DNA of 64,000 bases, taken from contig JADJBR010000007.1 in the NCBI GenBank assembly GCA_016703645.1, positions 1,054,001 through 1,118,000 on the forward strand, in the 5' to 3' direction. The stretch is from Zoogloea sp. (GTDB lineage: Bacteria > Pseudomonadota > Gammaproteobacteria > Burkholderiales > Rhodocyclaceae). The notes beneath the pieces were generated by a model. The model saw only the letters and a program-made list of their open reading frames with translations. It searched no databases and was not told where the DNA came from. Below, in pieces: positions 27,368 through 46,357 of this stretch (position 1 is its first letter; every line of letters begins with the position of its first letter). The position numbers were made by a program, and so were the translations under genes.

Positions 27368-28459
27368 ATGAAGACCGCACACTACACAATCCTATTTCAC
27401 ACCCCGGCTTTCCTTGGCAACGCGGAGCAGAGCGGCCAGTGGAGAACGCCTCCCTTCAAGGCCCAGTTGCGCCAGTGGTGGCGGGTGGCCTATGCGGCCA
27501 GCCTGGGCTTCACGCCCGATGTGGCGCGGATGCGGGAGGAAGAAGGCAGGCTTTTCGGCCATGCCTGGCTGGAGAACGACCGGGACGAGCAAGGCGAGAA
27601 AGTCGCTGCTCGCAAGAGCCAGGTACGGATACGGCTGTTGCACTGGGACCCTGGCAGCCTGTCGAAGAGCCGCTGGTCGCCCCTGGCTCAGGTGAAGCAT
27701 CCGGAAGCTCCAGACGCTACGGCAGATCTATATCTCGGCTTTGGCCCGGTCGTGCTGCCTCGTGGTGAGAGAACGCCCACGCTCAAGGCCAACGCCGCCA
27801 TCCAGACCGGCGAAGAAAACACCTTCGCCATCGCCTATCCCGATGAACATGCCCCGCTGATCGAACAGGCGCTGGCGCTAATGAGCCGGTTCGGTACCGT
27901 TGGCGGTCGCAGTCGCAATGGCTGGGGCTCGTACAGCCTGCACGACATTGGCGACGTTCCCAGCCTGCCGCTGCGCCCCTGGCAAGACGCGCTGAAGCTC
28001 GACTGGCCGCACGCCATCGGCAGCGACGCCAAGGGTGCGCTGATCTGGCAGACCACGCCGTTTGCGGACTGGCAGCCGCTGATGAGGGAGCTGGCGATCA
28101 TCAAGATCGGCCTGCGAACCCAGCGCCCTGACTTCGAACTCACGCCGGACTACAGCGCAGGTGACCGCGAAACAAGGAATGGGATCAATCATGAGGTACC
28201 GCAGGCACGCCATTGGCTCAGCTATCCCGTAACGCACCATGATGTATCCGGCTGGAAGAAAAACAACGCCCGCCTCCCCAACAGCCTGCGCTTCAAGATC
28301 CGTCCTGCGCCCGACGGCCAGCTCGTCGGCGTGATCTTCCACATGCCCTGTCTGCCCCCGCCAGCGTTCAAGCCGCAACGAGAAGCGATCAATGCCGTAT
28401 GGCAACAAGTGCACGCCTTCCTCGACAAGCAATCCTCACTGACACGAACCAGGGCCTGA
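27368..28459 (+). CDS. cmr1: type III-B CRISPR RAMP protein Cmr1
   Basis: A 363-residue Cas7-group subunit that caps the Cmr complex at the crRNA 3' end. The diagnostic Cmr1 opening is clear: FHTPAFLGNAEQSGQWRTPP, FKAQLRQWWRVAYAA. The glycine-rich RAMP loop is FGTVGGRSRNGWGSYSL. I chose ATG 27368 (MKTAHYTILFH) with AAAGGA upstream; the longer frame from 27185 is not coding. It is the first gene of the cmr operon, 4 bp before cas10. Confidence 0.92.
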   Translation: MKTAHYTILFHTPAFLGNAEQSGQWRTPPFKAQLRQWWRVAYAASLGFTPDVARMREEEGRLFGHAWLENDRDEQGEKVAARKSQVRIRLLHWDPGSLSKSRWSPLAQVKHPEAPDATADLYLGFGPVVLPRGERTPTLKANAAIQTGEENTFAIAYPDEHAPLIEQALALMSRFGTVGGRSRNGWGSYSLHDIGDVPSLPLRPWQDALKLDWPHAIGSDAKGALIWQTTPFADWQPLMRELAIIKIGLRTQRPDFELTPDYSAGDRETRNGINHEVPQARHWLSYPVTHHDVSGWKKNNARLPNSLRFKIRPAPDGQLVGVIFHMPCLPPPAFKPQREAINAVWQQVHAFLDKQSSLTRTRA

Positions 28460-28463
28460 GACC

Positions 28464-31457
28464 ATGGAGAACAAGGACATCATCTGGCAAACCAAACTCG
28501 CCGCGCGCATCCACGACCCGGCGGAGAAAGCCCTCGTGCTGCTGCGCGACCCGGCCGGGCACGAGGGCGGCAGCATCGTAGGCATCGGCAAGGCTCTGGG
28601 CTTCGAGACACATATGCTCAAACGCAGGGACGGCTCGGAGATCGAAAAATTGAAGCTGCCGTCCGAGATGGAGCGGATCATCGGGCAGGCTGACAGGTGG
28701 GCGGCGGCATCGGATCGGCCCCAGTGGCCAATGGATTACCAAGGGAAGTACGAGAAATGGGCGCAAGTCCACTGGTCAAACCGGCCCGTGCTCATCCACC
28801 CGCTGACCGGCACCCACTTCGATCTGCACAGCCTCGCAGACACCGACTTCCACGACATCAAGCAGCGAAGCTTCAAGCATTTCTCGAATCTGCTCGTGGC
28901 GCTGGGCGCCAAGGAAGGCGAAGAAGACCTGCGCAAGACCCTGCTCGCCTTCTGGCGCTTCGGCCCGGAGCTGAATGAAGAGGCCGACAACGGCAAACTC
29001 GGCCCCCTGTGGCAGCAGCTCCCCGCCGACACCCGCGTGCCCGATCACTCGATCTGGGACCACCTGGACCTGACCTCGGCCTTTGCCGGCGCCTTTGCCG
29101 CCGACCCCGATGGGGAAGCAGCCTTGCTGGCCCTGTCCATCGGCCCGGTCCAACCCTTCATCGCCGCCGCCCGCAGCACCTCCGACCTGTGGGCCGGCTC
29201 CCACCTGCTGTCCCGCCTGGCCTGGGAGGCCATGCGCCCGGTCTGCGAGGCGCTCGGGCCGGATGCCATCCTGTTCCCACGCCTGCGCGGTGTGCCCCAG
29301 GTGGATCTGTGGCTGCGCGACCCGATGGGTCTGCCCCATACGCTGTTTGCCAAATGCGACTGGCAGCAAGACGGCACCGACAGCAACCCGCTGTTCTCGG
29401 CCGCCCTGCCCAACCGCTTTGTCGCCGTGGTACCGGCGAGCCGGGCCAGGGCCATCGCGGAAGAAGTAGAAACAGCCGTGCGCGTGTGGCTGGCAAACCT
29501 GGGCCAAACTGTCGTGGACACGCTGCTGGAAGCTGTCGGTATCGAGAAAGACAAGACACAGCCCTGCTACCAGCAGATGCACGAACAGCTCTCGGGCTTC
29601 CCCGAAGTGCACTGGGCCGCCGTGCCCTTCTCGCTGATCACGCCACGCAACAAGGAGAAGCAGACCGACCTGGACACCGTGCAGTTGTCGCAGGCGATGG
29701 CCCCCTTCTTCGACGTCGAACCCGGCCAGCCCTGCGGCTTTCTTGATACGCCGGCCTGGAAGGTGTTGCAGGGTGAAGGCCACGACAGCCGCTTTTTTGC
29801 GCCCAACCCGGGCGCGCTCTACCCGGCCATCTACGAGCTGGCAGAGCGCGTCATGGCCGCTGCCAAGGCAGTGCGCCCCTTCAGCCAGACCCGGCAGGAA
29901 GGCTGGCGCTGCTCGCTGACCGGCGAGACCGAATGGCTGACGACCGATAAGGGGCTGCTCACCGTTCCCGCAGGGAAGCGCCGCAGCCGCAAGGACAAAC
30001 GTGGATTCCGTGAAAGCGAACACGTCGAAACGCTATGGACCAAGATAGCCGATGAGAAAATGTCGTGGGCCAAACCCGGCGAGCACCTCGGCGCACTGCC
30101 GGCTATCAAACGTCTATGGCCGACGCTGTTTGCCGAGGCAGTGGGCAAGGCACTTTCTGCGGTCGACAACGGTGAAGCGATGAAGATTGGCCGCTTCGTC
30201 GTTTCCACCCACACCATGGCGCTGGCGCATCAGCTCGACCAGTGGATGAACGATGAAAAGACCAACAACGCGGAAACCCCGGATGTCGGCGGCGACAGCG
30301 TGGCGCTGCCACGCAAGCTGTTGAAAGAATACGGGCACAAACGTCGCAAGCTCGAAATCGCCAAACGCCTGCCCGGCCTGCTCGACGCCGCCGACGAAGA
30401 GGACAACGACGCGGCCAGCACCGAGGCGGAAAAGCAGGTGCGCCAGACCCTCGGCGTCCAGCGGCTTGAAGCCTATTACGCCCTGCTGCTGATGGACGGC
30501 GACCGCATGGGGCAGATGCTCTACGGCGATCCGCAGTGGGCCATCTCGTACTGCGACAGTTTTCACCCGCAAGTGAAAGATGGTTTCAAGAAGCACGCAG
30601 CCAACCAACCAGCAATCAACAGCTACGGTGAGCAGAAGCGCGCCCTCTCGCCCAACCGACACCTCGCCATCTCCGGCGCACTCAATGATTTCTCGCTCAC
30701 CGTGGTGCGCCACGTGGTCGAGGAGGAACACCTGGGCCGCGTCATCTACGCCGGCGGCGACGACGTGCTGGCCATGCTGCCGGTGGTCGATGCGCTGTCG
30801 GCGGCGCAGCGCCTGCGGCAGGCCTATTCCGGCATTGATCCGGCGCACGAGGGCGGGCGCGATCCGCGCGGCCTGACCTTGCACAAGGGCTTTGCCATCC
30901 TCAAGGTTAAGGGCAAGGACAAGCTCATGCGCATGATGGGCGACACCGCCACCGCCTCCTGCGGCATTGTCATCGCCCACCACCAGGCCCCGCTCACCGC
31001 CGTGCGCCGTGAGCTGGACGCAGCAGAAAAACGCGCCAAGAACGCCGGCCGGGATCGTTTCTCGATCACTGTCATCAAGCGCTCGGGCGGTGCATTGGAG
31101 CTGACCGCCGAATGGGGTGAGCCACTGAAGCTGTTGAACGACTTGCGATGCTTTCTGCGGGAAGAAGGCGTCTCGCGTCGGGCTGTCTACAACACCGCCG
31201 AGTGGCTGCACGACCTACCGGAGCCGGAAGGCGACGCAGCCATGCTCTCCAGCCTTCTGGCCTTCCAGATGGCGCGGCAAGTGAGCCTCAAGGACAAGGA
31301 AAGGCAGGCCAGGCTTAAGGATCAAGCTGGTGTGCTGGCCAAGCCTCTCGCCGAACTGGCTGCGCAACAACCCAAAGACCGCCTTAAATGGCTGGGCAAC
31401 TTCCTCAGCGTGGCCGAATTCCTGGCCCGCGAAACCCGCAGTGGAGCCCCGGAATGA
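28464..31457 (+). CDS. cmr2: type III-B CRISPR Cas10/Cmr2, predicted cyclic oligoadenylate synthase
   Basis: A 997-residue large subunit. Near the N terminus RIHDPAEK (H17, D18) is the HD-type motif of Cmr2. The Palm domain has YAGGDDVLAML with GGDD at 764-767, the polymerase active site that makes cyclic oligoadenylates on target RNA binding. A small acidic stretch (DAADEEDNDAASTEAEKQ) lies before the Palm. Presence of an intact GGDD together with CARF proteins and ring-nuclease candidates in the same locus argues that signalling is active. Its stop overlaps the cmr3 start by 4 nt. Confidence 0.95.
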   Translation: MENKDIIWQTKLAARIHDPAEKALVLLRDPAGHEGGSIVGIGKALGFETHMLKRRDGSEIEKLKLPSEMERIIGQADRWAAASDRPQWPMDYQGKYEKWAQVHWSNRPVLIHPLTGTHFDLHSLADTDFHDIKQRSFKHFSNLLVALGAKEGEEDLRKTLLAFWRFGPELNEEADNGKLGPLWQQLPADTRVPDHSIWDHLDLTSAFAGAFAADPDGEAALLALSIGPVQPFIAAARSTSDLWAGSHLLSRLAWEAMRPVCEALGPDAILFPRLRGVPQVDLWLRDPMGLPHTLFAKCDWQQDGTDSNPLFSAALPNRFVAVVPASRARAIAEEVETAVRVWLANLGQTVVDTLLEAVGIEKDKTQPCYQQMHEQLSGFPEVHWAAVPFSLITPRNKEKQTDLDTVQLSQAMAPFFDVEPGQPCGFLDTPAWKVLQGEGHDSRFFAPNPGALYPAIYELAERVMAAAKAVRPFSQTRQEGWRCSLTGETEWLTTDKGLLTVPAGKRRSRKDKRGFRESEHVETLWTKIADEKMSWAKPGEHLGALPAIKRLWPTLFAEAVGKALSAVDNGEAMKIGRFVVSTHTMALAHQLDQWMNDEKTNNAETPDVGGDSVALPRKLLKEYGHKRRKLEIAKRLPGLLDAADEEDNDAASTEAEKQVRQTLGVQRLEAYYALLLMDGDRMGQMLYGDPQWAISYCDSFHPQVKDGFKKHAANQPAINSYGEQKRALSPNRHLAISGALNDFSLTVVRHVVEEEHLGRVIYAGGDDVLAMLPVVDALSAAQRLRQAYSGIDPAHEGGRDPRGLTLHKGFAILKVKGKDKLMRMMGDTATASCGIVIAHHQAPLTAVRRELDAAEKRAKNAGRDRFSITVIKRSGGALELTAEWGEPLKLLNDLRCFLREEGVSRRAVYNTAEWLHDLPEPEGDAAMLSSLLAFQMARQVSLKDKERQARLKDQAGVLAKPLAELAAQQPKDRLKWLGNFLSVAEFLARETRSGAPE

Positions 31458-32653
31458 GCACCCAGACCACCTTCATCGAGCCGCTGGATGTCCTCTTCCT
31501 GCGCGGCAACAAGCTGTTTGGCGACCCCGGCAGCTACGGCGAATCCCTGGTGCCCCCCTGGCCGTCGGTCGCGGCGGGCGCGCTGCGCTCGCGCATGCTG
31601 GCCGACGAGCGCGTCGATCTGGCCGCCTTCGCCCGCGGCGAGGTCGATCACCCTACCCTCGGCACTCCGAAGCGGCCCGGCAGTTTTGCGGTCACTGCCT
31701 TCCATCTGGCTCGGCGCTTTGCCGATGGTAGGGTCGAACTGCTCATCGCCCCGCCGGCCGATCTGGTCATCAGTGAAAGCGAGGGCAAGGTCAGCAGCGT
31801 GCGCAGCCTGCAACCCACGGTGCTGGCCAGCGGCTTGGAGGCATCGAGCCCCCTGCCCCGGCTGCCCGTGCTGGCCGAAGAGCAACGCAGCAAACCGGCG
31901 GGCGGCTACTGGCTGACGCAGGCAGGATGGGAGAAGTACCTCAAGGGCGAAAAGCCCGCCGCTGACGATCTGCTCAAAGCCAGCCAACTCTGGGCCATCG
32001 ACCACCGGGTCGGCGTCGGCCTCGATGCGCACACCCGCCGCGCCGCCGACGGCAAGCTGTTCAGCGTGCAGGCGGTGAGCATGGTGCAACCGCGGCACGA
32101 GATCGCGAAGCGCAGGGTCATGAAGGATGACAAACAGCATCAAGAGCCCATCCTTGCCGACTATGCCGTGGGTTTTCTGGCGTCCGTCAGCTGCGCTTCG
32201 CTACCCAAGGACGGCAGCCTGCGCCTGGGCGGTGATGGCCGCGCCGCCGCGCTGCACCCCTGCGACGCCCCCCCACCCACCGCCGACCACGCCGCCATCG
32301 CCGCCGCCCGGCGCTGCCGCATCGTGCTTTCCACGCCGGGCATTTTTGCCGACGGCTGGCGCCTGCCCGGCGTCGACGCCCAAGGCCGCTTCGCGCTTGG
32401 CGGCGTGCGCGGCAAATTGGTCTGCGCCGCCGTGCCCCGCTTCGAGGCCATCTCCGGCTGGGATCTGGCCTCGCGTGAGCCCAAGACAGCCCAACGCGTT
32501 GCCCCTGCCGGCAGCGTGTATTGGCTGGACGAACTCGACGCCACGCCCGACGCGCTCGGCAAGCTTGCCGCTGCCGGCCTGTGGGACAAAGCCTGTGAAG
32601 ATGCAGCGCGTCGCGCCGAAGGGTTCAACCGACTTTCCCTGGCCTACTGGTGA
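31454..32653 (+). CDS. cmr3: type III-B CRISPR protein Cmr3 (Cas5 group)
   Basis: A 399-residue RAMP protein that holds the crRNA 5' tag with Cas10. The N terminus FIEPLDVLFLRGNKLFGDPG is the classic Cmr3 opening, followed by PPWPSVAAGALRSRML. The late glycine-rich region is FALGGVRGKLVCAAVP. The ATG at 31454 overlaps the cas10 stop (ATGA). The following gene is not a cmr gene but a RhuM-Fic protein that starts 10 bp later. Confidence 0.92.
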   Translation: MSTQTTFIEPLDVLFLRGNKLFGDPGSYGESLVPPWPSVAAGALRSRMLADERVDLAAFARGEVDHPTLGTPKRPGSFAVTAFHLARRFADGRVELLIAPPADLVISESEGKVSSVRSLQPTVLASGLEASSPLPRLPVLAEEQRSKPAGGYWLTQAGWEKYLKGEKPAADDLLKASQLWAIDHRVGVGLDAHTRRAADGKLFSVQAVSMVQPRHEIAKRRVMKDDKQHQEPILADYAVGFLASVSCASLPKDGSLRLGGDGRAAALHPCDAPPPTADHAAIAAARRCRIVLSTPGIFADGWRLPGVDAQGRFALGGVRGKLVCAAVPRFEAISGWDLASREPKTAQRVAPAGSVYWLDELDATPDALGKLAAAGLWDKACEDAARRAEGFNRLSLAYW

Positions 32654-32663
32654 GGTTCCGAAC

Positions 32664-33641
32664 ATGAATGAACTGCTGATTTTTGAAACCGATAGCAAGC
32701 AGGTCGCTGTCCGGCTGGAGGGCGACACGGTCTGGCTGACCCAGCGGCAGATGGGTGAACTTTTTGGCACCACCTCTGAAAACGTGCTGATGCACCTGAA
32801 AAACATTTTTGGAGAGGAAGAACTGGACGAGGCGGCAACTGCCAAGGATTTCTTAGCAGTTCAAACCGAAGGTAAACGCCAGGTAAAACGCACGCTCAAG
32901 CACTACAACCTCGATGCCATCATCTCTGTCGGCTACCGAGTGAACTCAAAGCGCGGCGTCCGCTTTCGCCAATGGGCCACCCGCGTCCTGCGCGAACATC
33001 TCACCGAGGGATACAGCCTCAACGCAATCCGGCTGGCCGAGCGTGGCCTCGACGAGGCCCGCCAGGCCATCGACCTGCTCGCCCGCAGCCTGGCCGATCC
33101 GGCCCTCATCAGCGACACCGGGCGCGAGCTCATCGGGCTCATTGCCGGCTATGCCAAAACCTGGCACCTGCTGCTCAAGTACGACGAAGACGGCCTGCAA
33201 CTGCCTGCCGCTTGCCAGCCGGCGCGGGGCATTCTCGATTACGCCACCGCCCGCCGCGCCCTCGACGACCTCAAAGCCAGCCTGCACGCCTACGGCGAGG
33301 CCACCGACCTGTTTGCCCGCGAACACGGTGAGAGCCTGCACGGCATTCTGGGCAGCATCGAGCAAACCATGTTCGGCGAGCCGCTCTACCCGAGCCGTGA
33401 GGAGAAGGCAGCCCACCTCTTCTATTTCGTCATCAAGGACCACCCGTTCGCCGACGGTAACAAGCGCAGCGCGGCCTTCTTGCTGCTGCTCTACCTGCGG
33501 CAGGAAAGCATGCCGAGCAGCATCAACCCGGCGGCGCTGACCGCGCTGACCCTGCTGGTGGCCGAAAGCCAGCCGCAGAACAAGGATCTGATGATCCGCC
33601 TGATCGTCAATCTGCTGGCCGCCAGCGCACCGAATTTCTGA
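32664..33641 (+). CDS. RhuM family protein with C-terminal Fic/Doc domain, inside the cmr operon
   Basis: A 325-residue protein. The N-terminal half matches RhuM-type proteins (TVWLTQRQMGELFGTTSENV, KRTLKHYNLDAIISVGYRVNS, FRQWATRVLREHL, each a family hallmark). The C-terminal half is a Fic/Doc domain with HPFADGNKR (H260), the motif that transfers AMP or phosphate to target proteins. In many genomes such proteins sit with defence or toxin genes, but their role is unsettled. It lies between cmr3 and cmr4 in the same direction with gaps of 10 and 21 bp, so it is almost surely co-transcribed with them. Codon usage resembles the neighbours. Confidence 0.9.
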   Translation: MNELLIFETDSKQVAVRLEGDTVWLTQRQMGELFGTTSENVLMHLKNIFGEEELDEAATAKDFLAVQTEGKRQVKRTLKHYNLDAIISVGYRVNSKRGVRFRQWATRVLREHLTEGYSLNAIRLAERGLDEARQAIDLLARSLADPALISDTGRELIGLIAGYAKTWHLLLKYDEDGLQLPAACQPARGILDYATARRALDDLKASLHAYGEATDLFAREHGESLHGILGSIEQTMFGEPLYPSREEKAAHLFYFVIKDHPFADGNKRSAAFLLLLYLRQESMPSSINPAALTALTLLVAESQPQNKDLMIRLIVNLLAASAPNF

Positions 33642-34942
<1,301 letters not shown>

Positions 34943-34944
34943 GC

Positions 34945-36336
34945 ATGCCCATCGCCGCCGTACCGGCCTATCTTGGCCGTGACTTCAAGGATGCCTCGCC
35001 GGGCCTGCGCTTCGGCATGTTTCTGCCAATCTGGACCGAGCGTGCAGACCAAGAGGCCGACGTTCGCAGGCGCGCGGACGCAAAAAGCCGTGAGGGCGCC
35101 GAAGTGGCGGACATGCTGCAAAGGCTGGGCATGGATGCCACGATCCGTAACCTCCAGAACCGCCAGCAAAAGCCGCTTGCCGGCCTGTGGAACAAGAATG
35201 ACTTCGCTGCCAAGCAGGCCTGGAAGCAAGTCACGGCGCTCGCCAAGAAGGACAAAGTTCTGGCAGCGAGCCTGCTGGAGCGACAGCGTCATCTGGCTAT
35301 GCGGTCGGGAGACGAGTCACTACTTTGCCTTGAAGCCCTCGCCACGGCCCCCTTCACCACCGGCCTGGGCAACGAGCACCCGCTGGAAAACGGCTTCGCC
35401 TTTCTCAACCCCTACGGCCTGCCCTATCTGCCCGGCAGCGGCGTGAAGGGTGTCCTGCGGCAGGCGGCCAGGGAGCTGGCTGCCGGTGAATGGGGTGATC
35501 GGCACGGCTGGTGTACCGACGACAACTTGGTGCTGCGCGTCGGAAACACGGATCTTCGGTTTTCCACCATTGATGCCCTGTTCGGCCTGCAGTCCGCCGA
35601 TGGCGCATCCCAGCACCTGCGCGGCGCCCTCACCTTCTGGGACGTCATCCCCCAGATCAAGGGAGACAGTCTGACGGTGGACATCATGACGCCCCACCAG
35701 GGCCACTACTACCAACAGAAACCGGACAAGAAGACCGGCGACAGCACCACACCCCACGACTCCGGCCAGCCCATTCCCATCTCCTTTCTGACCCTTCCGC
35801 CCGGCTCCGGCTTCACCTTTCATGTGCAATGCGATCTGGCGCATCTCAACCGTATCGCGCCGGAACTGGCCACCGAAGGGCGCTGGAAAGCCATGCTCGA
35901 AGCCGCCTTTGCCCACGCCTTCCTGTGGCTGGGCTTTGGGGCCAAGACGTCCGTGGGCTATGGCGCGATGCAGGAAGACCCGAAAGCCGGAGCGCGCGAA
36001 GCGGCCAGACAGCAGGCGCAAGCCGAAGCAACCCGGCGCGCCCAGAAGGAAGCCGAGCGTGAGGCTGCGCTGGCGCAGATGTCGCCCCTCGACCGCGAGG
36101 TCCGCGAGTTCCTCGATGCTCGTCAGGACAAGAACCAGCCGGATCTGAGCGCGCTGATCGGCGGCTTGAAGAAAGGTCGATGGTCCGGCGTGAACAAGAT
36201 CGCCGTGGCGGAGCGCGCCAAGGCCATGATGCTGAGTGCGAAGAAATGGAGGGAAAAATCCGAGAAGAAGAACCCGGACAAGGACAACGACTATCAGGAC
36301 ACACTCAAGGTAATGGCGTGGATCAAGGGGCAATGA
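34945..36336 (+). CDS. cmr6: type III-B CRISPR RAMP protein Cmr6
   Basis: A 463-residue Cas7-group subunit, longer than many Cmr6 proteins because of an N-terminal charged region and a C-terminal Ala/Glu/Arg-rich coiled-coil (about 350-400). The RAMP core is evident in TTGLGNEHPLENGFAFLNPY, GLPYLPGSGVKGVLRQAAREL, MTPHQGHYY and FLWLGFGAKTSVGYGAM. The gene ends 75 bp before the vapB antitoxin and is the last canonical cmr gene. Confidence 0.93.
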   Translation: MPIAAVPAYLGRDFKDASPGLRFGMFLPIWTERADQEADVRRRADAKSREGAEVADMLQRLGMDATIRNLQNRQQKPLAGLWNKNDFAAKQAWKQVTALAKKDKVLAASLLERQRHLAMRSGDESLLCLEALATAPFTTGLGNEHPLENGFAFLNPYGLPYLPGSGVKGVLRQAARELAAGEWGDRHGWCTDDNLVLRVGNTDLRFSTIDALFGLQSADGASQHLRGALTFWDVIPQIKGDSLTVDIMTPHQGHYYQQKPDKKTGDSTTPHDSGQPIPISFLTLPPGSGFTFHVQCDLAHLNRIAPELATEGRWKAMLEAAFAHAFLWLGFGAKTSVGYGAMQEDPKAGAREAARQQAQAEATRRAQKEAEREAALAQMSPLDREVREFLDARQDKNQPDLSALIGGLKKGRWSGVNKIAVAERAKAMMLSAKKWREKSEKKNPDKDNDYQDTLKVMAWIKGQ

Positions 36337-36672: not shown

Positions 36673-37066
36673 CGTGCTCGACGCCTCGGCGATCCTCGCC
36701 TGGATTCTCAGGGAACCAGGCAGCGAACGGGTGCGCGAACTGATGGCGACCGGAAATTGCCTGCTGTCCGCCGTCAATGCCGCCGAGATCATCACCAAGC
36801 TGGCCGACAAGGATCGGCCGGAGACGGCCTTGCGGCAGGTGATCGCCCATATCGGCGCCGAATGCCTGCCCTTCGACGCCGCGCAAGCGACCGAAGCCGG
36901 CCTGCTGCGCCCGCTCACCCGCCACCTCGGCCTGTCGCTCGGCGACCGGGCCTGCCTGGCGCTGGCACGGCTGCATGGCGGCACCGTCATCACCGCCGAC
37001 CGCCCCTGGCTGCAACTGGCCGAACCACTCGGCCTAAGTATCGAATGCATTCGGCCACCGTCGTGA
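36659..37066 (+). CDS. vapC: PIN-domain toxin of a VapBC pair
   Basis: A 135-residue PIN-domain ribonuclease. The acidic active site is complete: D8 (VLDASAIL), E43 (VNAAEII), D96 (LGDRACLALA) and D114 (TADRPW). ATG 36659 gives MSMNSVLDAS; ATG 36665 is an equal alternative. The start lies inside the antitoxin gene, and the last 22 nt overlap the start of cas6 in another frame. So the toxin pair and cas6 are translationally linked within the CRISPR operon. Confidence 0.9.
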   Translation: MSMNSVLDASAILAWILREPGSERVRELMATGNCLLSAVNAAEIITKLADKDRPETALRQVIAHIGAECLPFDAAQATEAGLLRPLTRHLGLSLGDRACLALARLHGGTVITADRPWLQLAEPLGLSIECIRPPS

Positions 37067-37994
37067 TATCTCTTCCCCTCGCCCGCTACCGCCTCGACTT
37101 CACCGTCACCACGCCTCTCACCCTGCCCGCCTTTGCCGGCTCCACCCTGCGCGGCGCCTTCGGCAGGGCGCTGCGCGCCGACATCTGCATGACCCATGCC
37201 AAGATATGCGACGGCTGCGCCTTGCTGGCCTCCTGCCCGTATGCCGTGGTGTTCGAGCCACGGCCGCCATCCGCAGCGCACCCCTTGCAAGACTTCAATC
37301 AGATTCCCCGTGCCTATGTCATCGAGCCGCCCCAGTGGGGCGAAAAAACCTATGCGCCAGGCGAAACACTGAGCTTTCACATTGTGCTGGCCGGGCACGC
37401 AATCGAGCAGTTGCCGCTGATCCTGTGGGCGTTTCACAAGGGCTTTCAGCGTGGCGTTGGCCGGGGCGACGGCACGGCCACGCTGACGCAGGCCTGGCAT
37501 GTGATCGGTAAAGACGCCACGCCGATCCTTGACGGCCCCGGCGGCAACATCGCCCGGCATGCAACCACCGTGCCGCCGGCGCCCGACTTTGCAGGCCACG
37601 CAGTCACCCTGCATTTCGACTCGCCGCTACGTCTGCAAACCAACGGCCGCCGCGCCACGGCAGAAGAATTTACCCCGCGCAAGCTGCTCATGAGGTTGGT
37701 CGGACGCATCGCGCTGATCCACGAATTCCACGGCGCAGGCTCGTTGCCGCTGGATTTCAAGGCCCTGGCGGCGCAGGCCGAAACGCTCGGGAGCGACAAG
37801 CAACTCAAATGGCGCGACTGGAGCCGCTACTCCAGCCGTCAGCAGCAGAAAATCGACCTGGGGGGCGTCATCGGTAGCTGGCGCCTGACCGGTGAGATCG
37901 CCCCCTTCATTCCGTTCCTGTATCTGGGGCAATGGCTCCATGTGGGCAAGGAAGCCACCTTCGGCCTGGGTGGCTATCGTCTGGAACTCCACCT

Positions 37995-37998
<4 letters not shown>
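37045..37998 (+). CDS. cas6: CRISPR pre-crRNA processing endoribonuclease Cas6
   Basis: A 317-residue RAMP-type Cas6 that cuts the repeat RNA. The N terminus has TTPLTLPAFAGSTLRGAFGRAL and the cysteine cluster CMTHAKICDGCALLASCPY (C48, C55, C58, C64), seen in the Cys-containing Cas6 family. The C-terminal glycine-rich loop is LHVGKEATFGLGGYRLEL. The ATG at 37045 lies within the vapC 3' end. The expected cut leaves an 8-nt 5' tag ATTAAGAC from the array repeats. Confidence 0.92.
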
Positions 37999-39451
<1,453 letters not shown>

Positions 39452-39467
39452 ACATGTAGGGACATTG

Positions 39468-39497: not shown

Positions 39498-39593
39498 ATT
39501 GCTCGCAGACTCGCTCTGCAAGCTTGCCGCCCCCGGCCCCGCTCCCCAGTCAGCCCATACTCGCCCCAGCTTCTCGAAACCGGAGACAAGAGC

Positions 39594-39878
39594 ATGGCCC
39601 AGCGGGACTTCTATCTGGCGGCCTACGACGTCACCCACCCCCGCCGCCTGGCCGCGGCACTGGCGCTCGTCAGGGGCTACACCACGGGTGGCCAGAAGTC
39701 CGTTCATGAGGTTTTTCTGACCCGGGCCGAGCGCAGTGAGCTGCTGCACAGCATGGCGCTACTCCTGGACGAGGACAGCGACCGCTTCTTTCTCCTGCGC
39801 CTTGACCCCCGGGCGCGAACCTACGCCCTTGGGCTGGCAGCCCAGCCCAAAGACCCCGACTACTTCTACGTGGGATGA
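39594..39878 (+). CDS. cas2: CRISPR adaptation protein Cas2 (first copy)
   Basis: A 94-residue ferredoxin-fold Cas2. FYLAAYDVTHPRRLAAALALVRGY carries the conserved Asp after strand 1, and FFLLRLDPRARTYAL is the second strand region. The ATG 39594 follows GGAGACAAGAGC; the earlier in-frame start at 39444 precedes the terminator and is excluded. It is 4 bp before cas1, and the unusual cas2-cas1 order is mirrored by a second pair downstream. Confidence 0.9.
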   Translation: MAQRDFYLAAYDVTHPRRLAAALALVRGYTTGGQKSVHEVFLTRAERSELLHSMALLLDEDSDRFFLLRLDPRARTYALGLAAQPKDPDYFYVG

Positions 39879-39882
39879 CACC

Positions 39883-40872
39883 ATGGCCACCCTCCTCCTC
39901 GACCGCGCCGACCTTGAAGCACGCATGTCCGATGGCGCCCTCGCCCTCTACGAGAACGGCACGCGCACCCAGACCGTGCCGCTTCGCCTGCTGGAGCGAG
40001 TAGTCATCCAGGGCGCCCGCACAAAACTCGACACCAGCGTACTGCTCAAGCTGGCCGAGGCGGGGGTACCCACCCTTCTTCTCAGCCCGCGGGCCGGCCG
40101 CCAGGTCGCTGTCATCCTTGGCCCCCAGCACAACGATGCCGCCATTCGGCTCGCACAGGCCCGCCGCGTGACCGACGATGCATTCTGTGCCAACTGGGCC
40201 AGGCAGATGGTCACGGCCAAGCTACGTCGACAGCACCGCCTGCTGACGCAAGCCGAAGCCCGTCGCCCCGATCTTCGCAAAGCCCTCTTTGATGCCCGGG
40301 AGGGCGTTGCCAACGCACTGAACCACCTTTCGCCCAGCAGCGACACGCCGCCCTGCGCCCGCCTGAGAGGCCTCGAGGGTGCCGCCGCACGGGCCTACTT
40401 TGGCGGCTACACCGCGCTCTTCGCGCCTCAACTGGGCTTTACCGGCCGCAACCGCCGTCCGCCTCGCGACCCGGTGAACGCCTGCCTCTCTCTGGCCTAC
40501 ACGCTACTGCACTTTGAAGCCGTGCGTGCGGCCCATGGCGCCGGCCTTGACCCCCTGCTCGGCTTCTATCACCGGCCCAGTTTCGGTAGGGAATCCCTTG
40601 CCTGCGACCTGATCGAGCCACTGCGCCCCAGCGTCGACGAATGGCTGTGGAACCAGTTCACCTCCGGCCCCCTGCGCCCCGAACACTTCACAAGCGACAA
40701 GGGCGCCTGCCTGCTGGGCAAAGCCGGGCGAGCCCACTTCTACGCCCAGTGGGAAGCATGTGCACCGCCCCTGCGGCGATGGCTGAGACAAACCTGCAGG
40801 CAACTGTCCCGAAGCCTGCGCAGTGAAGGCCTGCCCTGGCTCGGCAACGATCTCGACGACGAGGAGTTCTAG
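39883..40872 (+). CDS. cas1: CRISPR adaptation integrase Cas1
   Basis: A 329-residue integrase. The metal ligands are all present: E165 in RLRGLEGAAARAYF, H230 in LLGFYHRPSFGRESLA, and D242/E245 in CDLIEPLRPS. The N-terminal beta domain is LLLDRADLEARMSDGALALY with GVPTLLLSPRAGRQVA. It is preceded by cas2 (4 bp) and followed after 2 bp by a Cas1-like gene, so the four adaptation genes form one operon. Confidence 0.95.
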   Translation: MATLLLDRADLEARMSDGALALYENGTRTQTVPLRLLERVVIQGARTKLDTSVLLKLAEAGVPTLLLSPRAGRQVAVILGPQHNDAAIRLAQARRVTDDAFCANWARQMVTAKLRRQHRLLTQAEARRPDLRKALFDAREGVANALNHLSPSSDTPPCARLRGLEGAAARAYFGGYTALFAPQLGFTGRNRRPPRDPVNACLSLAYTLLHFEAVRAAHGAGLDPLLGFYHRPSFGRESLACDLIEPLRPSVDEWLWNQFTSGPLRPEHFTSDKGACLLGKAGRAHFYAQWEACAPPLRRWLRQTCRQLSRSLRSEGLPWLGNDLDDEEF

Positions 40873-40874
40873 CG

Positions 40875-41666
40875 ATGCCAAGCCGCGCCCACAACGGTCT
40901 TTCAAGTGGCACGCCCGACCGCAAGCCGCTCTATCTTTTCGCGGGCGCGCGGATCGACGCCGGCAGCGATCACCTGCTCCTGCGTCGAGACGGCACAGCC
41001 CCCCAGCGCTTCCCGGTTGCACGCATCACCCGCATCATCTGCAACCATCAGGCATCCTGGAGCGGTCAGGCGCTCTCACTCTGCCTCACCGAAGGCATCG
41101 CCATCACCTGGATTGACGGGCATGGACACGCCATCGGCAGCGCCCAGAGCAACCATCATCCCCCATGCAACCTGGCGACCCTGATCGAAACCTACCTGGA
41201 ACTGCAGGACTGGCCCCAGCGTTTCGCAAACTGGCTCGCCCACCGGCGGCTCGACCTCCTTCTGAACTGCGCGCGTAGAGCCAGCGCCGAAGAGCACCCC
41301 ATGGAGAAAGAGGTATTCCAGGAACTCAAGCGCCAGTTCGTCTACAACGGCACCCACCCGCTGGCCTTCGAGCCTGAAGGTGAAGGCTTCTGCCACGCCT
41401 TAACGGTTGACCACCTGAATCGCGCGCAACTGCAGGCCACCTACTGGGGCTTCGATGCCAGCCCCTTCGAGCTCGCCAAACACCTGGCCGCCCTGCTCTG
41501 GGCAGAGCTGAATCTGGAGTGCGGCACGCTTCCGGCCAGCGCCGACCACCGCACCGTTGTCGCCCGCCTGTTCGAGACCTGGGCCCATCAGAGGGAAGCC
41601 CAGCTACAAAATCACTTACGCGACCTCAAATGCCACCTCGCCCGGGAGGTCAACACATGGCAATGA
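40875..41666 (+). CDS. Cas1-like protein lacking the recognisable Cas1 active site
   Basis: A 263-residue protein. Residues about 18-95 match the Cas1 N-terminal beta domain (LYLFAGARIDAGSDHLLLRR, VARITRIICN, GIAITWIDGHGHAIGSAQ), closely paralleling the neighbouring Cas1. The C-terminal helical part (LQDWPQRFANWLAHRRLDLL, then VDHLNRAQLQATYWGFDASP) does not contain the LEG...YF glutamate motif or the paired His and Asp/Glu motifs that hold the metals. It is therefore probably a structural or targeting partner rather than an integrase. It starts 2 bp after cas1 and overlaps the second cas2 by 10 nt. Confidence 0.75.
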   Translation: MPSRAHNGLSSGTPDRKPLYLFAGARIDAGSDHLLLRRDGTAPQRFPVARITRIICNHQASWSGQALSLCLTEGIAITWIDGHGHAIGSAQSNHHPPCNLATLIETYLELQDWPQRFANWLAHRRLDLLLNCARRASAEEHPMEKEVFQELKRQFVYNGTHPLAFEPEGEGFCHALTVDHLNRAQLQATYWGFDASPFELAKHLAALLWAELNLECGTLPASADHRTVVARLFETWAHQREAQLQNHLRDLKCHLAREVNTWQ

Positions 41667-41986
41667 ACGCACCCTGCGGCTGGCTGGTCACCTACGACAT
41701 TGCCAGCCCACGCCGCCTCGCTCGCCTGCACCGGTTCCTTGTCAAGCAGGCCACACCCATCCAGTACTCGGTTTTTCACTTTGAGGGCAGCCCCGGGGAA
41801 ATGGGCCGCCTCATCAAGGAAATCGAAGCCTATATCGACCCAAAAGCAGACGACGTTCGCGCCTACGCCTTGCCAACGGAGCTTTCCATCGACACATACG
41901 GAAAAGGAAAGAGCATCAAGGGCACTTCGCTGCTCTCCGCCTGCGCGCCTTATCTGCAGAAGCTCCTGCAAGCAACCGCCAAGTGA
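41657..41986 (+). CDS. second Cas2-family protein
   Basis: A 109-residue Cas2 with WLVTYDIASPRRLARLHRFL (conserved Asp) and PIQYSVFHFEGSPGEMGRL, the best-known Cas2 segment, then IDPKADDVRAYALP. It is more typical of the family than the first copy. The ATG 41657 lies inside the end of the Cas1-like gene. It is the last adaptation gene, 120 bp before the first repeat. Having two Cas2 proteins and two Cas1-type proteins in one operon suggests a mixed integration complex. Confidence 0.88.
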   Translation: MAMNAPCGWLVTYDIASPRRLARLHRFLVKQATPIQYSVFHFEGSPGEMGRLIKEIEAYIDPKADDVRAYALPTELSIDTYGKGKSIKGTSLLSACAPYLQKLLQATAK

Positions 41987-42106
41987 TACGATCCAGCCAT
42001 GCAACACGGCAAGTATCTGCCACAACAATCCACTCGGCACACCACCGAAAAGTGTGGCGCCCCGCTCTTCAACAACCTGAATTCATTCACGTTATTTGAA
42101 ATAGCA
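41987..42106 (+). promoter_or_regulatory. CRISPR leader
   Basis: 120 bp between the second cas2 and the first repeat, with an AT-rich end next to the array (AATTCATTCACGTTATTTGA). It is placed as leader because repeats here are perfect, while the repeat at the far end of the array is decayed, and because repeats end in ATTAAGAC on this strand. Confidence 0.75.
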
Positions 42107-44743
42107 GTCCGGACTGATGCCCTGATCTGAAAGGGATTAAGACATCGCCTCGGGCATATAGCCCATCTTCGCCGCAGGTCCGGACTGATGCCCTGATCTG
42201 AAAGGGATTAAGACCGCAGCTTGGTGCCGAGCTGCGTGCCGGACAGTCCGGACTGATGCCCTGATCTGAAAGGGATTAAGACGGCCGCGCGAACGGCCTT
42301 TAGCAACGCAGCGGTTGGTCCGGACTGATGCCCTGATCTGAAAGGGATTAAGACAGCGCTGCGAGCTTGACCAGACCGTTGCCTTCAGTCCGGACTGATG
42401 CCCTGATCTGAAAGGGATTAAGACTTGTTAGATTGGCGCTTAGTCCAGGTGTCGGCTAGGTCCGGACTGATGCCCTGATCTGAAAGGGATTAAGACCTTT
42501 TAGCCTCCACTGGGTTAGTCGTTGATATCGTCCGGACTGATGCCCTGATCTGAAAGGGATTAAGACGACGCAGCGTCCGAAGGGAGAGACGCCGGCCTCG
42601 TCCGGACTGATGCCCTGATCTGAAAGGGATTAAGACTTCCGGTGTCGATGCTCTTAACCCGGTGAGTAAGTCCGGACTGATGCCCTGATCTGAAAGGGAT
42701 TAAGACTCAGGCGCTTCCATGCCGGAGAAGGAAGGAATGCCGTCCGGACTGATGCCCTGATCTGAAAGGGATTAAGACCCGATACAGGCGCTTCGCCCAT
42801 TTTACGTAGGCGGTCCGGACTGATGCCCTGATCTGAAAGGGATTAAGACTCACCAAGTTGAATAATGTATCCGAGTTCCGAGGTCCGGACTGATGCCCTG
42901 ATCTGAAAGGGATTAAGACGTCCTTAGTAGCGTCAGGCGCGCGGGCCTCAACGTCCGGACTGATGCCCTGATCTGAAAGGGATTAAGACGTCGATCGCCT
43001 CGGGCATGTAGCCCATCCTCACGTCCGGACTGATGCCCTGATCTGAAAGGGATTAAGACGCGCGACGTGCCGTTCGATGTGCTTTGGCACGCTGTCCGGA
43101 CTGATGCCCTGATCTGAAAGGGATTAAGACTCATTTTCGTTCTCCTGCTTGTTTTGATCGGCCGTCCGGACTGATGCCCTGATCTGAAAGGGATTAAGAC
43201 CCCATATGGCACGCGCCCGCCGTTCCAGTAGTCCGGACTGATGCCCTGATCTGAAAGGGATTAAGACACCGCCACTTTGTATCGATCATGCTCGCCCGTC
43301 CGGACTGATGCCCTGATCTGAAAGGGATTAAGACTTTGACACTGAATGTCAGCTTGAATCCGGCGAAGGTCCGGACTGATGCCCTGATCTGAAAGGGATT
43401 AAGACGCTTCCAGCTTGGCGTAGGCAGCGGCGATAGCGGGGTCCGGACTGATGCCCTGATCTGAAAGGGATTAAGACGGATCGACACAGCGCACCGAGGC
43501 GTACTCGGAAGTCCGGACTGATGCCCTGATCTGAAAGGGATTAAGACGGCCCAGACAGCCATGCCGACCATCGTGCTGCGGTCCGGACTGATGCCCTGAT
43601 CTGAAAGGGATTAAGACGGACCCTCCGGCCTACTTACGCGGCGCGGCGACCGTCCGGACTGATGCCCTGATCTGAAAGGGATTAAGACTTATCGGTAGCG
43701 ATCACGCTGCCAATCGTCGCACGTCCGGACTGATGCCCTGATCTGAAAGGGATTAAGACTCCATGTTGCCCGCTAGTGCCTCGTCAGGCATGCGTCCGGA
43801 CTGATGCCCTGATCTGAAAGGGATTAAGACGCTGCCCCCTTTCCGGCCTTTTCGCTGCCCCAGGCGTCCGGACTGATGCCCTGATCTGAAAGGGATTAAG
43901 ACGCCGCGGTCGCCGTCGAGGTTGGGGACATGGTGTCCGGACTGATGCCCTGATCTGAAAGGGATTAAGACCTGTACATTTGCATGTAGCCATCGTTTTT
44001 TTGTGTCCGGACTGATGCCCTGATCTGAAAGGGATTAAGACGGGGGTTGCTGATGATCTGCTCGGCCACGGCGGTCCGGACTGATGCCCTGATCTGAAAG
44101 GGATTAAGACATATCTCGGTCAGCGCCCAGCGTGCCGATGTCCGTCCGGACTGATGCCCTGATCTGAAAGGGATTAAGACTTCCGCCCGGCAGCGCTACA
44201 CAGAGCATGCAGCGCGTCCGGACTGATGCCCTGATCTGAAAGGGATTAAGACCCTTCGGCCGCATATACCAAGTTATTTCCGCCGTCCGGACTGATGCCC
44301 TGATCTGAAAGGGATTAAGACTGTCGAACCCGCTCACGTTGGGGTCGTCATAGAGTCCGGACTGATGCCCTGATCTGAAAGGGATTAAGACGGCAGTGTG
44401 GGCATGAACTCCTCCGAAAGCTTCGTCCGGACTGATGCCCTGATCTGAAAGGGATTAAGACTCAGAAAACGGATTCACCTCATTGCCCAGCGTCGTCCGG
44501 ACTGATGCCCTGATCTGAAAGGGATTAAGACAGTTCGGCGTCGATCTCGGCAGCCAGGAAGCTGTCCGGACTGATGCCCTGATCTGAAAGGGATTAAGAC
44601 ACAGCTGCAATGAGGTCTGCTTCAGAGATGCTGACAGTCCGGACTGATGCCCTGATCTGAAAGGGATTAAGACACCGGAAGCTTTTTCGCCACGATCACG
44701 GCGGCGGTCCGGAATGATGCCCTGCCCGAAAGCGGCAGGCACA
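42107..44743 (+). CRISPR. CRISPR array, 37 intact 37-nt repeats plus one decayed terminal repeat, 37 spacers
   Basis: Repeats are 37 nt, begin GTCCGGACTGATGCCC and end GAAAGGGATTAAGAC, with the first at 42107-42143 and the last intact one at 44637-44673. The final repeat at 44707-44743 keeps only the first 19 or so bases with a C-to-A change, then diverges, which marks the trailer end. Spacers are 30-36 nt (mostly 33). The 3' end ATTAAGAC would be the 8-nt crRNA 5' tag after Cas6 cutting, so transcription runs on the plus strand. Open frames seen on the minus strand here (repeating LNPFQIRASVRT) are translations of the repeat and not genes. Confidence 0.98.
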
Positions 44744-44762
44744 CCGATCCGACAAAGTCCTT

Positions 44763-45110
44763 CTACATTTCCCGCTTGATCAACATGAACGAGTAGCCAA
44801 CCTGTTCAACCTCTTCCGCACTGACCAGCACCTGGCCCTCGCCAAGACGGCGGGCCAGGCGTAGCACCAGGGCCTGCTGGCCAGGCAACTGGACGCACGC
44901 CCTTCTGCACATGGGGCATTCGATGTGCAGCAAGCGGGATATCAGCTCTGCGGTCGGGGCATGCCCGATGGCGCTGCAAAAACCGTGCGCCTCGACGAGG
45001 GCACGCGCTTCGGAAAGACTCAGTGTGCTGCTGCGAAACAGGCCTTCTGCGGTGATGATTGGCGCATTGAGCAGCCACACTGGCGTACCGGGCGGGAAAG
45101 ATGAAGTCAT
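44763..45110 (-). CDS. DUF1874 / Crn2 (AcrIII-1 fold) ring nuclease candidate
   Basis: A 115-residue protein with the DUF1874 pattern: WLLNAPIITAEGLF, an Ala-rich EARALVEAHGF helix, SAIGHAPTAELISRLLHIECP with the key histidine H50 (the SIGH...T motif of AcrIII-1), and ARRLGEGQVLVSAEEVEQVGYSFML. In viruses this fold (AcrIII-1) and in hosts Crn2 degrade cyclic tetra-adenylate. The normal VPVNR segment is replaced by CPMCRRAC. ATG 45110 is chosen where resemblance begins; the upstream frame to 45242 overlaps the divergent gene. It sits right after the array, opposite in direction, and shares a promoter gap with the CARF gene. Confidence 0.8.
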   Translation of the reverse strand: MTSSFPPGTPVWLLNAPIITAEGLFRSSTLSLSEARALVEAHGFCSAIGHAPTAELISRLLHIECPMCRRACVQLPGQQALVLRLARRLGEGQVLVSAEEVEQVGYSFMLIKREM

Positions 45111-45223
45111 TTCGCCATATTTGCGCAAGCAGGTGGTGTGATCGCCACCTTGCAAGCTTGCATGCCGCCGCGCCTGTGGGCTGCGCCTTAGAATGCGGAT
45201 TCCTCTGCACATCGCCCCTCCGA

Positions 45224-46357
45224 ATGGCCTCCACCCCCTCACCCAAGCGCATTCTCCTGGCCGTCACGGGCCTCACGCCCCAGATCGTTACCGAAACGCT
45301 CTATGCCCTGGCCTGCCGTGACGCCGACCCTTGGGTTCCCCACGAGATTCATCTGATCACTACGACCACAGGCGCCGAAAGCGCCCGGCTCAACCTTCTG
45401 CATGGGAACGGCTGGTTCCATCGCCTGTGCCGTGACTACGACCTCCCCCGGATCGTCTTCCCAGCCGAGAACATTCATGTCCTGCGGGACGCGGCGGGCG
45501 CACCGCTGGACGACATCCGCACCCAGGCCCAGAACACCTTGGCCGCAGATTTCATCATGGACAAGGTGCGTGAACTCACCCAAGAGCCGTCCCACGAGCT
45601 GCATGTGTCGATAGCAGGCGGACGCAAAACCATGGGCTATTACCTGGGCTATGCCCTGTCCCTGTATGGCCGCCCCCAGGACCGCCTGTCCCATGTGCTG
45701 GTTTCCGACCCCTATGAAACCAACCGGGATTTCTATTATCCGACCCCCTACGATCATCCAATTCACGGTAGCCGGGGCAACAAGGACGTGACGGTGGATG
45801 CGCGCAACGCAAGGGTGGAGCTGGCGGACATTCCGTTTGTGCGTCTACGTGAAGGCCTTCCTGAACGCCTGCGCGAGGGGCATGCTTCGTTCTCCCAGGT
45901 GGTGGGCGCGGCCAACCGGAGCCTGGACGAACCTCGGCTCGTCCTCAACGTGGCTCAGCGCCAAGTGTGGGCCGATGAGGTGGAGATCAAACTCAGCGAA
46001 ACGGAGTTTCTGCTCCTGCTGTGGCTGGCCCAACGCAGCCAGCGGGAGGAAGCGGATACGGACTGGTCATCCGACACCATGGTCGATGAGTTCCTCGATC
46101 TGGCAAGACAGGTGCTGAACGAGATGAGCAGCGCCTATGAACGCATCGAATCGGCACTGCTGCAGAATCGCTCGATTGCCATCAAGACGGCCAAATACTT
46201 CGAGCCCCACAAATCGCGAATCAAGAAGGCTTTTGTCGCGATCCTGGGGGAGCAGGCGGCCAAGCGCTACCTGATCGTTCGCCAGCGTGGCGAGGATACG
46301 GCCCTCTACTTTCTGCCGCTGGGTGCAGAACAGATTGAGATCCTTGCAAATCGCTGA
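45224..46357 (+). CDS. NE0113-family CRISPR CARF protein with winged-helix region
   Basis: A 377-residue protein of the Cas_NE0113 (TIGR02584) family. The CARF domain opens RILLAVTGLTPQIVTETLYAL and contains VSIAGGRKTMGYYLGYALSL. After a linker, residues about 235-300 resemble an OmpR-like winged helix (RQVWADEVEIKLSETEFLLL), followed by helices. Database pipelines often call members ring nuclease or Csm6-like; sequence alone allows a cyclic oligoadenylate-responsive regulator or a nuclease without HEPN motif. ATG 45224 is chosen over an upstream in-frame start that overlaps the divergent DUF1874 gene. Divergent promoters lie in 45111-45223. Confidence 0.85.
   Translation: MASTPSPKRILLAVTGLTPQIVTETLYALACRDADPWVPHEIHLITTTTGAESARLNLLHGNGWFHRLCRDYDLPRIVFPAENIHVLRDAAGAPLDDIRTQAQNTLAADFIMDKVRELTQEPSHELHVSIAGGRKTMGYYLGYALSLYGRPQDRLSHVLVSDPYETNRDFYYPTPYDHPIHGSRGNKDVTVDARNARVELADIPFVRLREGLPERLREGHASFSQVVGAANRSLDEPRLVLNVAQRQVWADEVEIKLSETEFLLLLWLAQRSQREEADTDWSSDTMVDEFLDLARQVLNEMSSAYERIESALLQNRSIAIKTAKYFEPHKSRIKKAFVAILGEQAAKRYLIVRQRGEDTALYFLPLGAEQIEILANR

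What the first reader, a model, noticed from the sequence alone, without database searches (positions are those of the whole stretch)
40875..41986. Dual adaptation module: cas2-cas1 followed by a Cas1-like protein without an active site and a second Cas2
Four overlapping or near-overlapping genes read cas2, cas1, cas1-like, cas2. The first Cas1 has the full ligand set (E165, H230, D242/E245). The second shares the N-terminal beta domain but lacks all catalytic motifs. Such a degenerate partner could make an asymmetric integration complex, fix spacer orientation, or bind the leader. I do not know a described system with this exact composition.
Basis: partly seen in the sequence, partly recalled or inferred. 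Interest (0 to 1): 0.85.

Follow-up and report, generated by a model that had tools for sequence, protein, structure and literature searches.

The report
Four-part CRISPR spacer integrase with dead Cas1
Some proteobacteria carry a four-gene version of the machine that writes new memories into CRISPR, in which a catalytic Cas1 sits beside a second Cas1 that has lost its active site and two different Cas2 proteins, suggesting that one protein's two jobs have been split between two specialised partners.

Summary
Downstream of a type III-B locus lie cas2A-cas1-cas1L-cas2B (39594-41986), then a CRISPR array. Cas1L has the Cas1 fold (AlphaFold pLDDT 87.8; PDB matches are Cas1) but not the active-site residues. 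The family is catalogued as a profile (PADLOC PDLC01185, "Cas1, diverged variant, second in the loci"); ten paper searches gave no description of its function. All 24 loci found through Cas1L hold the quartet with an intact Cas1 directly upstream; four more came through Cas2A, one cut by a contig end. Cas1L is under purifying selection. The four genes co-diverge (r 0.90-0.95, nine loci) but not with cmr4 (0.13-0.27). Nine related loci hold Cas1 and both Cas2 genes without Cas1L and one keeps a remnant, so it can be lost. Best explanation, inferred: Cas1L is a dedicated version of the non-catalytic Cas1 protomer ("Cas1b") of solved Cas1-Cas2 complexes, giving two Cas1:Cas1L heterodimers around a Cas2A:Cas2B pair; any inequality of the ends would come from Cas2. 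No complex was modelled or assayed.

The parts
39594..39878 (+). cas2A, first Cas2 (94 aa); GGQKS-type Cas2 with conserved C-terminal DPxxFYVG
   Evidence: PF09827 1.4e-6; Y11, D12, G32, G33, Q34, S36 invariant in 23 sequences
39883..40872 (+). cas1, catalytic Cas1 (329 aa) with E165, H230, D242, E245
   Evidence: PF01867 1.3e-67; catalytic residues kept in the family
40875..41666 (+). cas1L, Cas1 fold without the Cas1 active-site residues (263 aa)
   Evidence: PADLOC PDLC01185 3.5e-101; AF2 pLDDT 87.8, pTM 0.86; Foldseek best E 4.1e-10, 4xtk Cas1
41657..41986 (+). cas2B, second Cas2 (109 aa), overlaps cas1L by 10 nt (a start at 41663 is also possible)
   Evidence: PF09827 2.2e-14; Y11, D12, R18 invariant in 23 sequences (numbering from 41663)
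41987..42106 (+). leader-like stretch between cas2B and the first repeat (120 bp)
   Evidence: position; similar-looking stretch in relatives, with and without Cas1L
42107..44743 (+). CRISPR array, 37-nt repeat GTCCGGACTGATGCCCTGATCTGAAAGGGATTAAGAC, 37 intact repeats plus one degenerate terminal repeat at 44707, spacers 30-36 nt
27185..36336 (+). type III-B effector genes cmr1, cas10/cmr2, cmr3, cmr4, cmr5, cmr6, with an extra gene at 32127-33641
   Evidence: Pfam Cmr2_N 4.5e-32, Cas_Cmr3 5.4e-62, Cas_Cmr5 3.5e-20 and RAMPs; NCBIfam Cmr4 2.9e-61, Cmr6 4.5e-31; PADLOC Cmr1 only 1.1e-7
36757..37998 (+). cas6 (PADLOC match from residue 105 of this frame on)
   Evidence: PF10040 9e-13, PADLOC Cas6 2.2e-98
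38285..39451 (+). CARF-HEPN Csx1-type effector
   Evidence: PADLOC CARF2--CARF_HEPN 3.2e-151
45101..46357 (+). CARF protein of the NE0113 / ring nuclease Csm6 family
   Evidence: PF09623 3.3e-49, TIGR02584 5.6e-72

Best explanation
The four genes encode one heteromeric spacer integrase. In solved Cas1-Cas2 integrases four identical Cas1 subunits form two dimers around a Cas2 dimer. In each dimer one Cas1 (Cas1a) takes the 3' end of the new DNA into its active site, while its identical partner (Cas1b) is non-catalytic and, in E. coli, makes the contacts to Cas2. Here the two jobs have been given to two genes: Cas1 is a dedicated Cas1a and Cas1L a dedicated Cas1b. Likely assembly: (Cas1:Cas1L)2 around a Cas2A:Cas2B pair. 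Cas1 at each end joins the 3' ends; Cas1L dimerises through its N-terminal beta domain, holds Cas2 and lines the repeat channel; the two different Cas2s could make the two ends unequal. Shown here: fold, loss of the site residues, constant neighbourhood, selection, co-divergence. Inferred: the heterodimer, the stoichiometry, the Cas2 heterodimer and any effect on orientation.
For: Quartet in 24 of 24 loci found through Cas1L and 4 more through Cas2A (one, L102, ends before cas2B). Cas1L matches Cas1 by profile over 252 columns (hhalign 95.5) and by fold. No catalytic set in any of 28. dN/dS of cas1L 0.15-0.30 in 6 of 6 pairs. Distances of the four genes correlate at r 0.90-0.95 on the same 9 loci, against 0.13-0.27 with cmr4. 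In Cas1L the N-terminal domain (the dimer domain, recalled) is more conserved than the C-terminal (2.21 against 1.74 bits per column); in Cas1 it is not (2.74 against 2.85, borders set by me, no significance test). Cas1L's model matches one protomer class of solved hexamers better: TMq 5vvj B 0.60, D 0.63, A 0.41, C 0.40; 4qdl D 0.58, B 0.55, A 0.47, C 0.39. In 5dqz chains B and C (0.61, 0.59) have target lengths 301 and 300, so they seem to include the Cas1b tail that PMC6395717 places at the PAM; chains A and D are not in the list. PMC6395717 (passages): 3' overhangs thread into Cas1a; Cas2 is adjacent to Cas1b and does not touch Cas1a. PMC8102632 (passages): 'non-catalytic Cas1b', 'catalytic Cas1a'. 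[quoted passage not shown]
Against: Cas1L is dispensable in some lineages: 9 related loci have Cas1 and both Cas2 genes in the same order without it (in 2 of them cas1 is broken), 2 more have another order without it, and one has only a remnant. Presence needs 5 changes on the Cas1 tree. cas1L evolves faster than its cas1 in 6 of 6 pairs (cas1 dN/dS 0.07-0.25), so it is less constrained. The control model of the catalytic Cas1 settles nothing: its N-domain is uncertain (pTM 0.73), its 50 listed matches hold none of the entries compared above and show no clear split by chain. rmsd of 6-8 A for the better chains shows that the domain angle is not reproduced. Which class is Cas1b is my inference from target length. 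Co-divergence could come from linkage alone. No complex was modelled.
Confidence: 0.58

Rival explanations
1. Cas1L (with or without Cas2B) is a separate accessory factor that does not enter the integrase as a Cas1 protomer: it selects or orients prespacers, as Cas4 or Csn2 help to do in other systems, or bridges to the effector or host factors.
For: None of the 16 window proteins from cmr1 to the NE0113 CARF gene (27185-46357) scanned with Pfam matched Cas4, Csn2 or a reverse transcriptase (neighbours in the other loci were not scanned for these). Dual-Cas2 modules can do without Cas1L, as expected of an accessory.
Against: Cas1L keeps the whole Cas1 fold including the dimer domain, its better conserved part. 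Its divergence does not follow cmr4 (r 0.25, n 9) or cmr6 (r 0.10, n 11), against an effector bridge.
Confidence: 0.22
2. One end of the complex carries a Cas1 homodimer and the other a Cas1L homodimer, so that only one strand is joined by Cas1 and direction is fixed absolutely (the strong form of the reader's asymmetry).
For: Two Cas2 types could recruit different dimers: the gene order cas2A-cas1 and cas1L-cas2B looks like two pairs.
Against: A spacer needs joining at both ends, and arrays beside the quartet carry up to 51 regular repeats (L029). Cas1 with both Cas2s exists without Cas1L, so Cas2B does not need a Cas1L dimer.
Confidence: 0.1
3. Cas1L has its own, different catalytic or nucleic-acid-processing site.
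For: Conserved residues exist (P47, C70, L181 invariant in the 20 rows; W62 in 24, W120 in 25 and R153 in 19 of 28), and the protein is basic (median pI 9.0).
Against: No conserved acidic or histidine cluster was seen across the family; the relic D is in 16 of 28; the C-terminal domain is the less conserved one.
Confidence: 0.06
4. Cas1L is a decaying duplicate without function.
For: Absent from several related lineages and present as a remnant in L101; faster evolving than cas1.
Against: dN/dS 0.15-0.30 in 6 of 6 pairs, open reading frame in genomes of 16 family-level groups, tight gene overlaps.
Confidence: 0.04

Closest known systems
PADLOC-DB PDLC01185, 'Cas1, diverged variant, second in the loci'
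   Same: Same protein family: window protein 3.5e-101; all 20 members of alignment A1 match (17 of them were found with this profile)
   Different: As shown to me, a profile with a one-line name; no partner genes, function, structure or distribution
Canonical Cas1-Cas2 integrase (E. coli type I-E, PDB 5dqz, 5vvj, 4qdl)
   Same: Cas1 with complete active site, Cas2, leader and repeats; functionally unlike Cas1 protomers already exist within each homodimer
   Different: There both protomers come from one gene and Cas2 is a homodimer; here a separate inactive Cas1 gene and two Cas2 genes
RT-Cas1 / Cas6-RT-Cas1-Cas2 integrases of type III systems (PDB 7kft, 7kfu)
   Same: Type III adaptation modules; non-catalytic Cas1b described (PMC8102632, passages)
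   Different: No reverse transcriptase domain in either window Cas1 (Pfam)
Dual-Cas2 modules cas2A-cas1-cas2B without Cas1L (Sphaerotilus sulfidivorans plasmid NZ_CP035707, Aeromonas media plasmid NZ_CP047963)
   Same: Same Cas2A, Cas1 and Cas2B families and gene order
   Different: Cas1L absent, so Cas1 would have to fill both protomer places there

Membership tests
Cas1 (catalytic integrase) | Cas1 fold: N-terminal beta domain plus C-terminal helical domain | tested here: met
   Cas1L AF2 model, Foldseek best E 4.1e-10 to 4xtk; hhalign over 252 columns
Cas1 (catalytic integrase) | Catalytic E, H, D/E residues | tested here: not met
   0 of 28 Cas1L hold the set; E165 column is a gap in 28
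PADLOC PDLC01185 family | Profile match over most of its length | tested here: met
   3.5e-101, profile positions 8-245 of 246
PADLOC PDLC01185 family | Second Cas1 in a locus with another Cas1 | tested here: met
   24 of 24 loci found through Cas1L
Cas2 | Cas2 domain with conserved N-terminal YD | tested here: met
   PF09827 for both; Y11, D12 invariant in 23 of 23 for each
Non-catalytic Cas1 protomer (Cas1b) as a role | Physical heterodimer with Cas1 and contact with Cas2 | not testable with these tools
   No multimer prediction or assay; only the chain-class match, with an uninformative control
Type III-B CRISPR-Cas | Cas10/Cmr2 with Cmr1, 3, 4, 5, 6 | tested here: met
   (Cmr1 weakly, 1.1e-7)

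The most novel reading that the evidence does not exclude
A naturally split, four-subunit CRISPR integrase: a dedicated catalytic Cas1, a dedicated non-catalytic Cas1 and a Cas2A:Cas2B heterodimer whose unequal halves let the complex tell the leader end from the spacer end, fixing spacer orientation without Cas4 or another PAM-reading factor.
Probability: 0.4. Interest if true: 0.78.

Novelty: new variant of a known kind. Interest (0 to 1): 0.62.

Why it matters
In the Cas1-Cas2 complexes described in the papers I saw, identical Cas1 chains do different jobs within one dimer, so the jobs cannot easily be mutated apart. A system in which evolution has put the two jobs on two genes would let each role (catalysis; holding Cas2 and the repeat) be studied separately, and would allow a test of whether a Cas2 heterodimer sets spacer direction. 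It would also be a clear case of a self-assembling enzyme splitting its labour after duplication.

Tried and rejected
Pseudogene: rejected on dN/dS and breadth. Independent second integrase with the Cas1 chemistry: rejected for lack of the residues. Leader recognition as the specific role of Cas1L: weakened, since L106, L110 and L113, which lack Cas1L, carry a similar-looking leader (by eye). Link to the effector: not supported. Mobile or phage carriage: the window Cas1L has no tblastn match among 72,556 plasmid or 50,697 phage records at 1e-5, and the viral contig scan with P0003 confirmed none; distant Cas1L could be missed, and close relatives of the window genome may be left out there. Spacer targets: no phage match for the window array, so spacer orientation could not be tested. 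phmmer against PDB sequences found no Cas1 for Cas1L; only the fold search did. The AF2 model of Cas1 was meant as a control for the protomer argument and proved uninformative.

Papers. Passages only were seen of PMC3150331, PMC12669027, PMC6395717, PMC9048733, PMC10910872, PMC6452270, PMC6895254, PMC12259127 and PMC8102632, at most 12 places per call (of the 2025 classification, PMC12669027, 12 of 47 places). Others were seen as search listings only. 'Not found in print' rests on ten searches of an open-access library; supplementary files could not be read and most subscription papers are missing. The source of the PADLOC profile was not traced.

Full report
What is there. The window holds a type III-B locus: cmr1, cas10, cmr3, cmr4, cmr5, cmr6 (27185-36336), cas6, a CARF-HEPN Csx1, then cas2A-cas1-cas1L-cas2B (39594-41986), a 120-bp leader-like stretch, a CRISPR array (42107-44743) and a CARF protein of the NE0113/Csm6 ring nuclease family. 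The array has 37 intact 37-nt repeats and one degenerate repeat at the far end, which fits a leader on the cas2B side. The second Cas1 (P0003) matches Pfam Cas1 only over residues 24-135.

The active site. Two alignments (hhalign of two family profiles; MAFFT merge) agree. In 35 of 35 Cas1 proteins E165, H230 and D242 are kept, and E245 is E in 33 and D in 2 (28 rows have a Cas1L neighbour, 7 do not; L049, L101, L103, L107, L108 and L109 were left out). In 28 Cas1L proteins the E165 column is a gap in 28, H survives in 1, D242 in 16, E245 in 1. In the window the D242 position is a histidine and the E245 position an alanine. The relic D in 16 of 28 fits descent from an active Cas1.

The fold. 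AlphaFold2 on 20 aligned family members gave pLDDT 87.8 and pTM 0.86. Of the 50 Foldseek matches listed (152 have E up to 0.001), 49 are titled Cas1, Cas1-Cas2, Cas-DNA or casposase; the other, 2yzs, is titled an uncharacterised Aquifex protein; best E 4.1e-10. So Cas1L has kept the whole Cas1 fold while losing the site residues.

Distribution. Searches with PDLC01185 found it in 5 of 399 genomes of the order, 13 of 369 of the class, 3 of 23 of the genus, 5 of 249 of the family and 1 of 398 of the phylum (window genome included each time; the first three at E 1e-10, the last two at 1e-18, so the last two would miss the weaker members; samples overlap). Distinct genomes: 22. With two contigs from genome contigs (one is Thauera phenylacetica) this makes 24 loci. 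All 24 have cas2A-cas1-cas1L-cas2B in that order on one strand. A search with Cas2A (32 of 258 class genomes, 16 of 140 order genomes at 1e-8) led me to fetch 17 neighbourhoods, mainly the strongest hits not already in hand; the weaker ones were left. Four new genomes have Cas1L (L098, L100, L104; L102 reaches the contig end before cas2B), two were already counted (L099, L105). Without Cas1L: L110-L114 (cas2A-cas1-cas2B); L106 and L107 (same, cas1 broken); L108 (cas2A-cas2B-cas1). L101 has a 160-bp gap whose start reads like the first codons of cas1L, a remnant. L103 is cut by the contig end and L109 is a broken locus. Three plasmid records also lack it: Sphaerotilus sulfidivorans L047 and Aeromonas media L048 (cas2A-cas1-cas2B) and Allochromatium vinosum L049 (cas2A-cas2B-cas1). 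The nine loci without Cas1L in the usual order are L106, L107, L110-L114, L047 and L048. The 26 sampled genomes with Cas1L fall into 16 family-level groups.

Evolution. A maximum-likelihood tree of 41 Cas1 rows, drawn with the two cas2-cas2-cas1 loci on the far branch, places Cas1L-bearing loci at several deep forks, with the loci lacking it (L110-L114; L048 with L107; L047; L101) set among them. Presence needs 5 changes (L103 and L109 not counted). With the remnant, an early gain followed by several losses is the simplest reading, but the tree cannot prove direction, the root is a midpoint, and several rows are long.

A unit. Start and stop codons nearly touch: cas1 to cas1L is -11 to +19 nt in 20 of 22 loci, cas1L to cas2B -10 to +3 nt in 19 of 22 (starts were chosen nearest to the preceding stop, which favours small gaps). 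cas1L dN/dS is 0.15-0.30 in six pairs (three of the six come from one trio, and the L035-L036 pair uses a part of the gene). It is higher than that of the neighbouring cas1 in 6 of 6 pairs. Pairwise distances correlate across 27 or 28 loci: cas1-cas1L r 0.84, cas1L-cas2A 0.79, cas1L-cas2B 0.81, none of 1000 permutations as high. In the nine of 28 loci that also had a clear cmr4 in the stretch fetched, the adaptation genes correlate at 0.90-0.95 with each other and 0.13-0.27 with cmr4; with cmr6 (n 11) r is -0.10 to 0.10. The module appears to travel as a block and to change effectors. Linkage alone could give part of this.

How it most likely works. Published Cas1-Cas2 structures show that identical Cas1 chains take two roles. 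PMC6395717 (passages): the 3' overhangs thread into Cas1a and Cas1a', and the Cas2 dimer is adjacent to Cas1b and does not touch Cas1a. PMC8102632 (passages) names catalytic Cas1a and non-catalytic Cas1b. [quoted passage not shown] A Cas1 that has lost its site but kept its fold and its partner is what a dedicated Cas1b would look like. In Cas1L the N-terminal domain is the better conserved one (2.21 against 1.74 bits), in Cas1 it is not (2.74 against 2.85). The Cas1L model fits one of the two protomer shapes better: 5vvj B 0.60, D 0.63, A 0.41, C 0.40; 4qdl D 0.58, B 0.55, A 0.47, C 0.39. In 5dqz the listed chains B and C have target lengths 301 and 300, which suggests that they are the Cas1b chains whose tail reads the PAM; this last step is my inference. 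The control model of the catalytic Cas1 did not help to decide.

Limits. No complex was predicted, no spacer target was found, and the role of the two Cas2s is inferred from their joint presence. Dual-Cas2 modules without Cas1L show that Cas1L can be absent.

Known or new. The gene family is already in a public profile library under a descriptive name. In ten searches of open-access papers I found no text describing the quartet or its mechanism; supplements and most subscription papers were out of reach. I therefore call it a new variant of a known kind.

Noticed in passing
window 25351-25467 and 55644-55759: A 117-bp element with 43 matches in this genome (83-100% identity, a few of them partial), a dispersed repeat family of unknown kind.
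   Followed up: partly
window 32127-33641: A RhuM-Fic protein gene (PF13310, PF02661) lies inside the effector operon between cmr3 and cmr4.
   Followed up: no
window 36355-37066: A MazE-like antitoxin gene followed by a PIN-domain gene (2.3e-17), a likely toxin-antitoxin pair, sits between cmr6 and cas6.
   Followed up: partly
window 55934-56186: Three tandem copies of an 85-bp GC-rich unit (92% matches).
   Followed up: no
window 53926-54225 and 54413-54712: Two 300-bp direct repeats, 93% identical, starts 487 bp apart.
   Followed up: no
L115:7705-8631: The same genome encodes a separate type I-E Cas1e on another contig.
   Followed up: partly
L047-L049, L106-L108, L110-L114 against the Cas1L loci: Repeats are 36 nt in 8 of 11 loci without Cas1L (37 in L047, L106, L107) and 37 nt in 20 of 22 Cas1L loci where an array was detected (36 in L043, L044). 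May be shared descent only.
   Followed up: no
cas1 C-termini in the Cas1L loci: Several catalytic Cas1 proteins of the nearer relatives end in an acidic tail closing with F (such as DDEEF, DDEDF); most distant ones do not.
   Followed up: no
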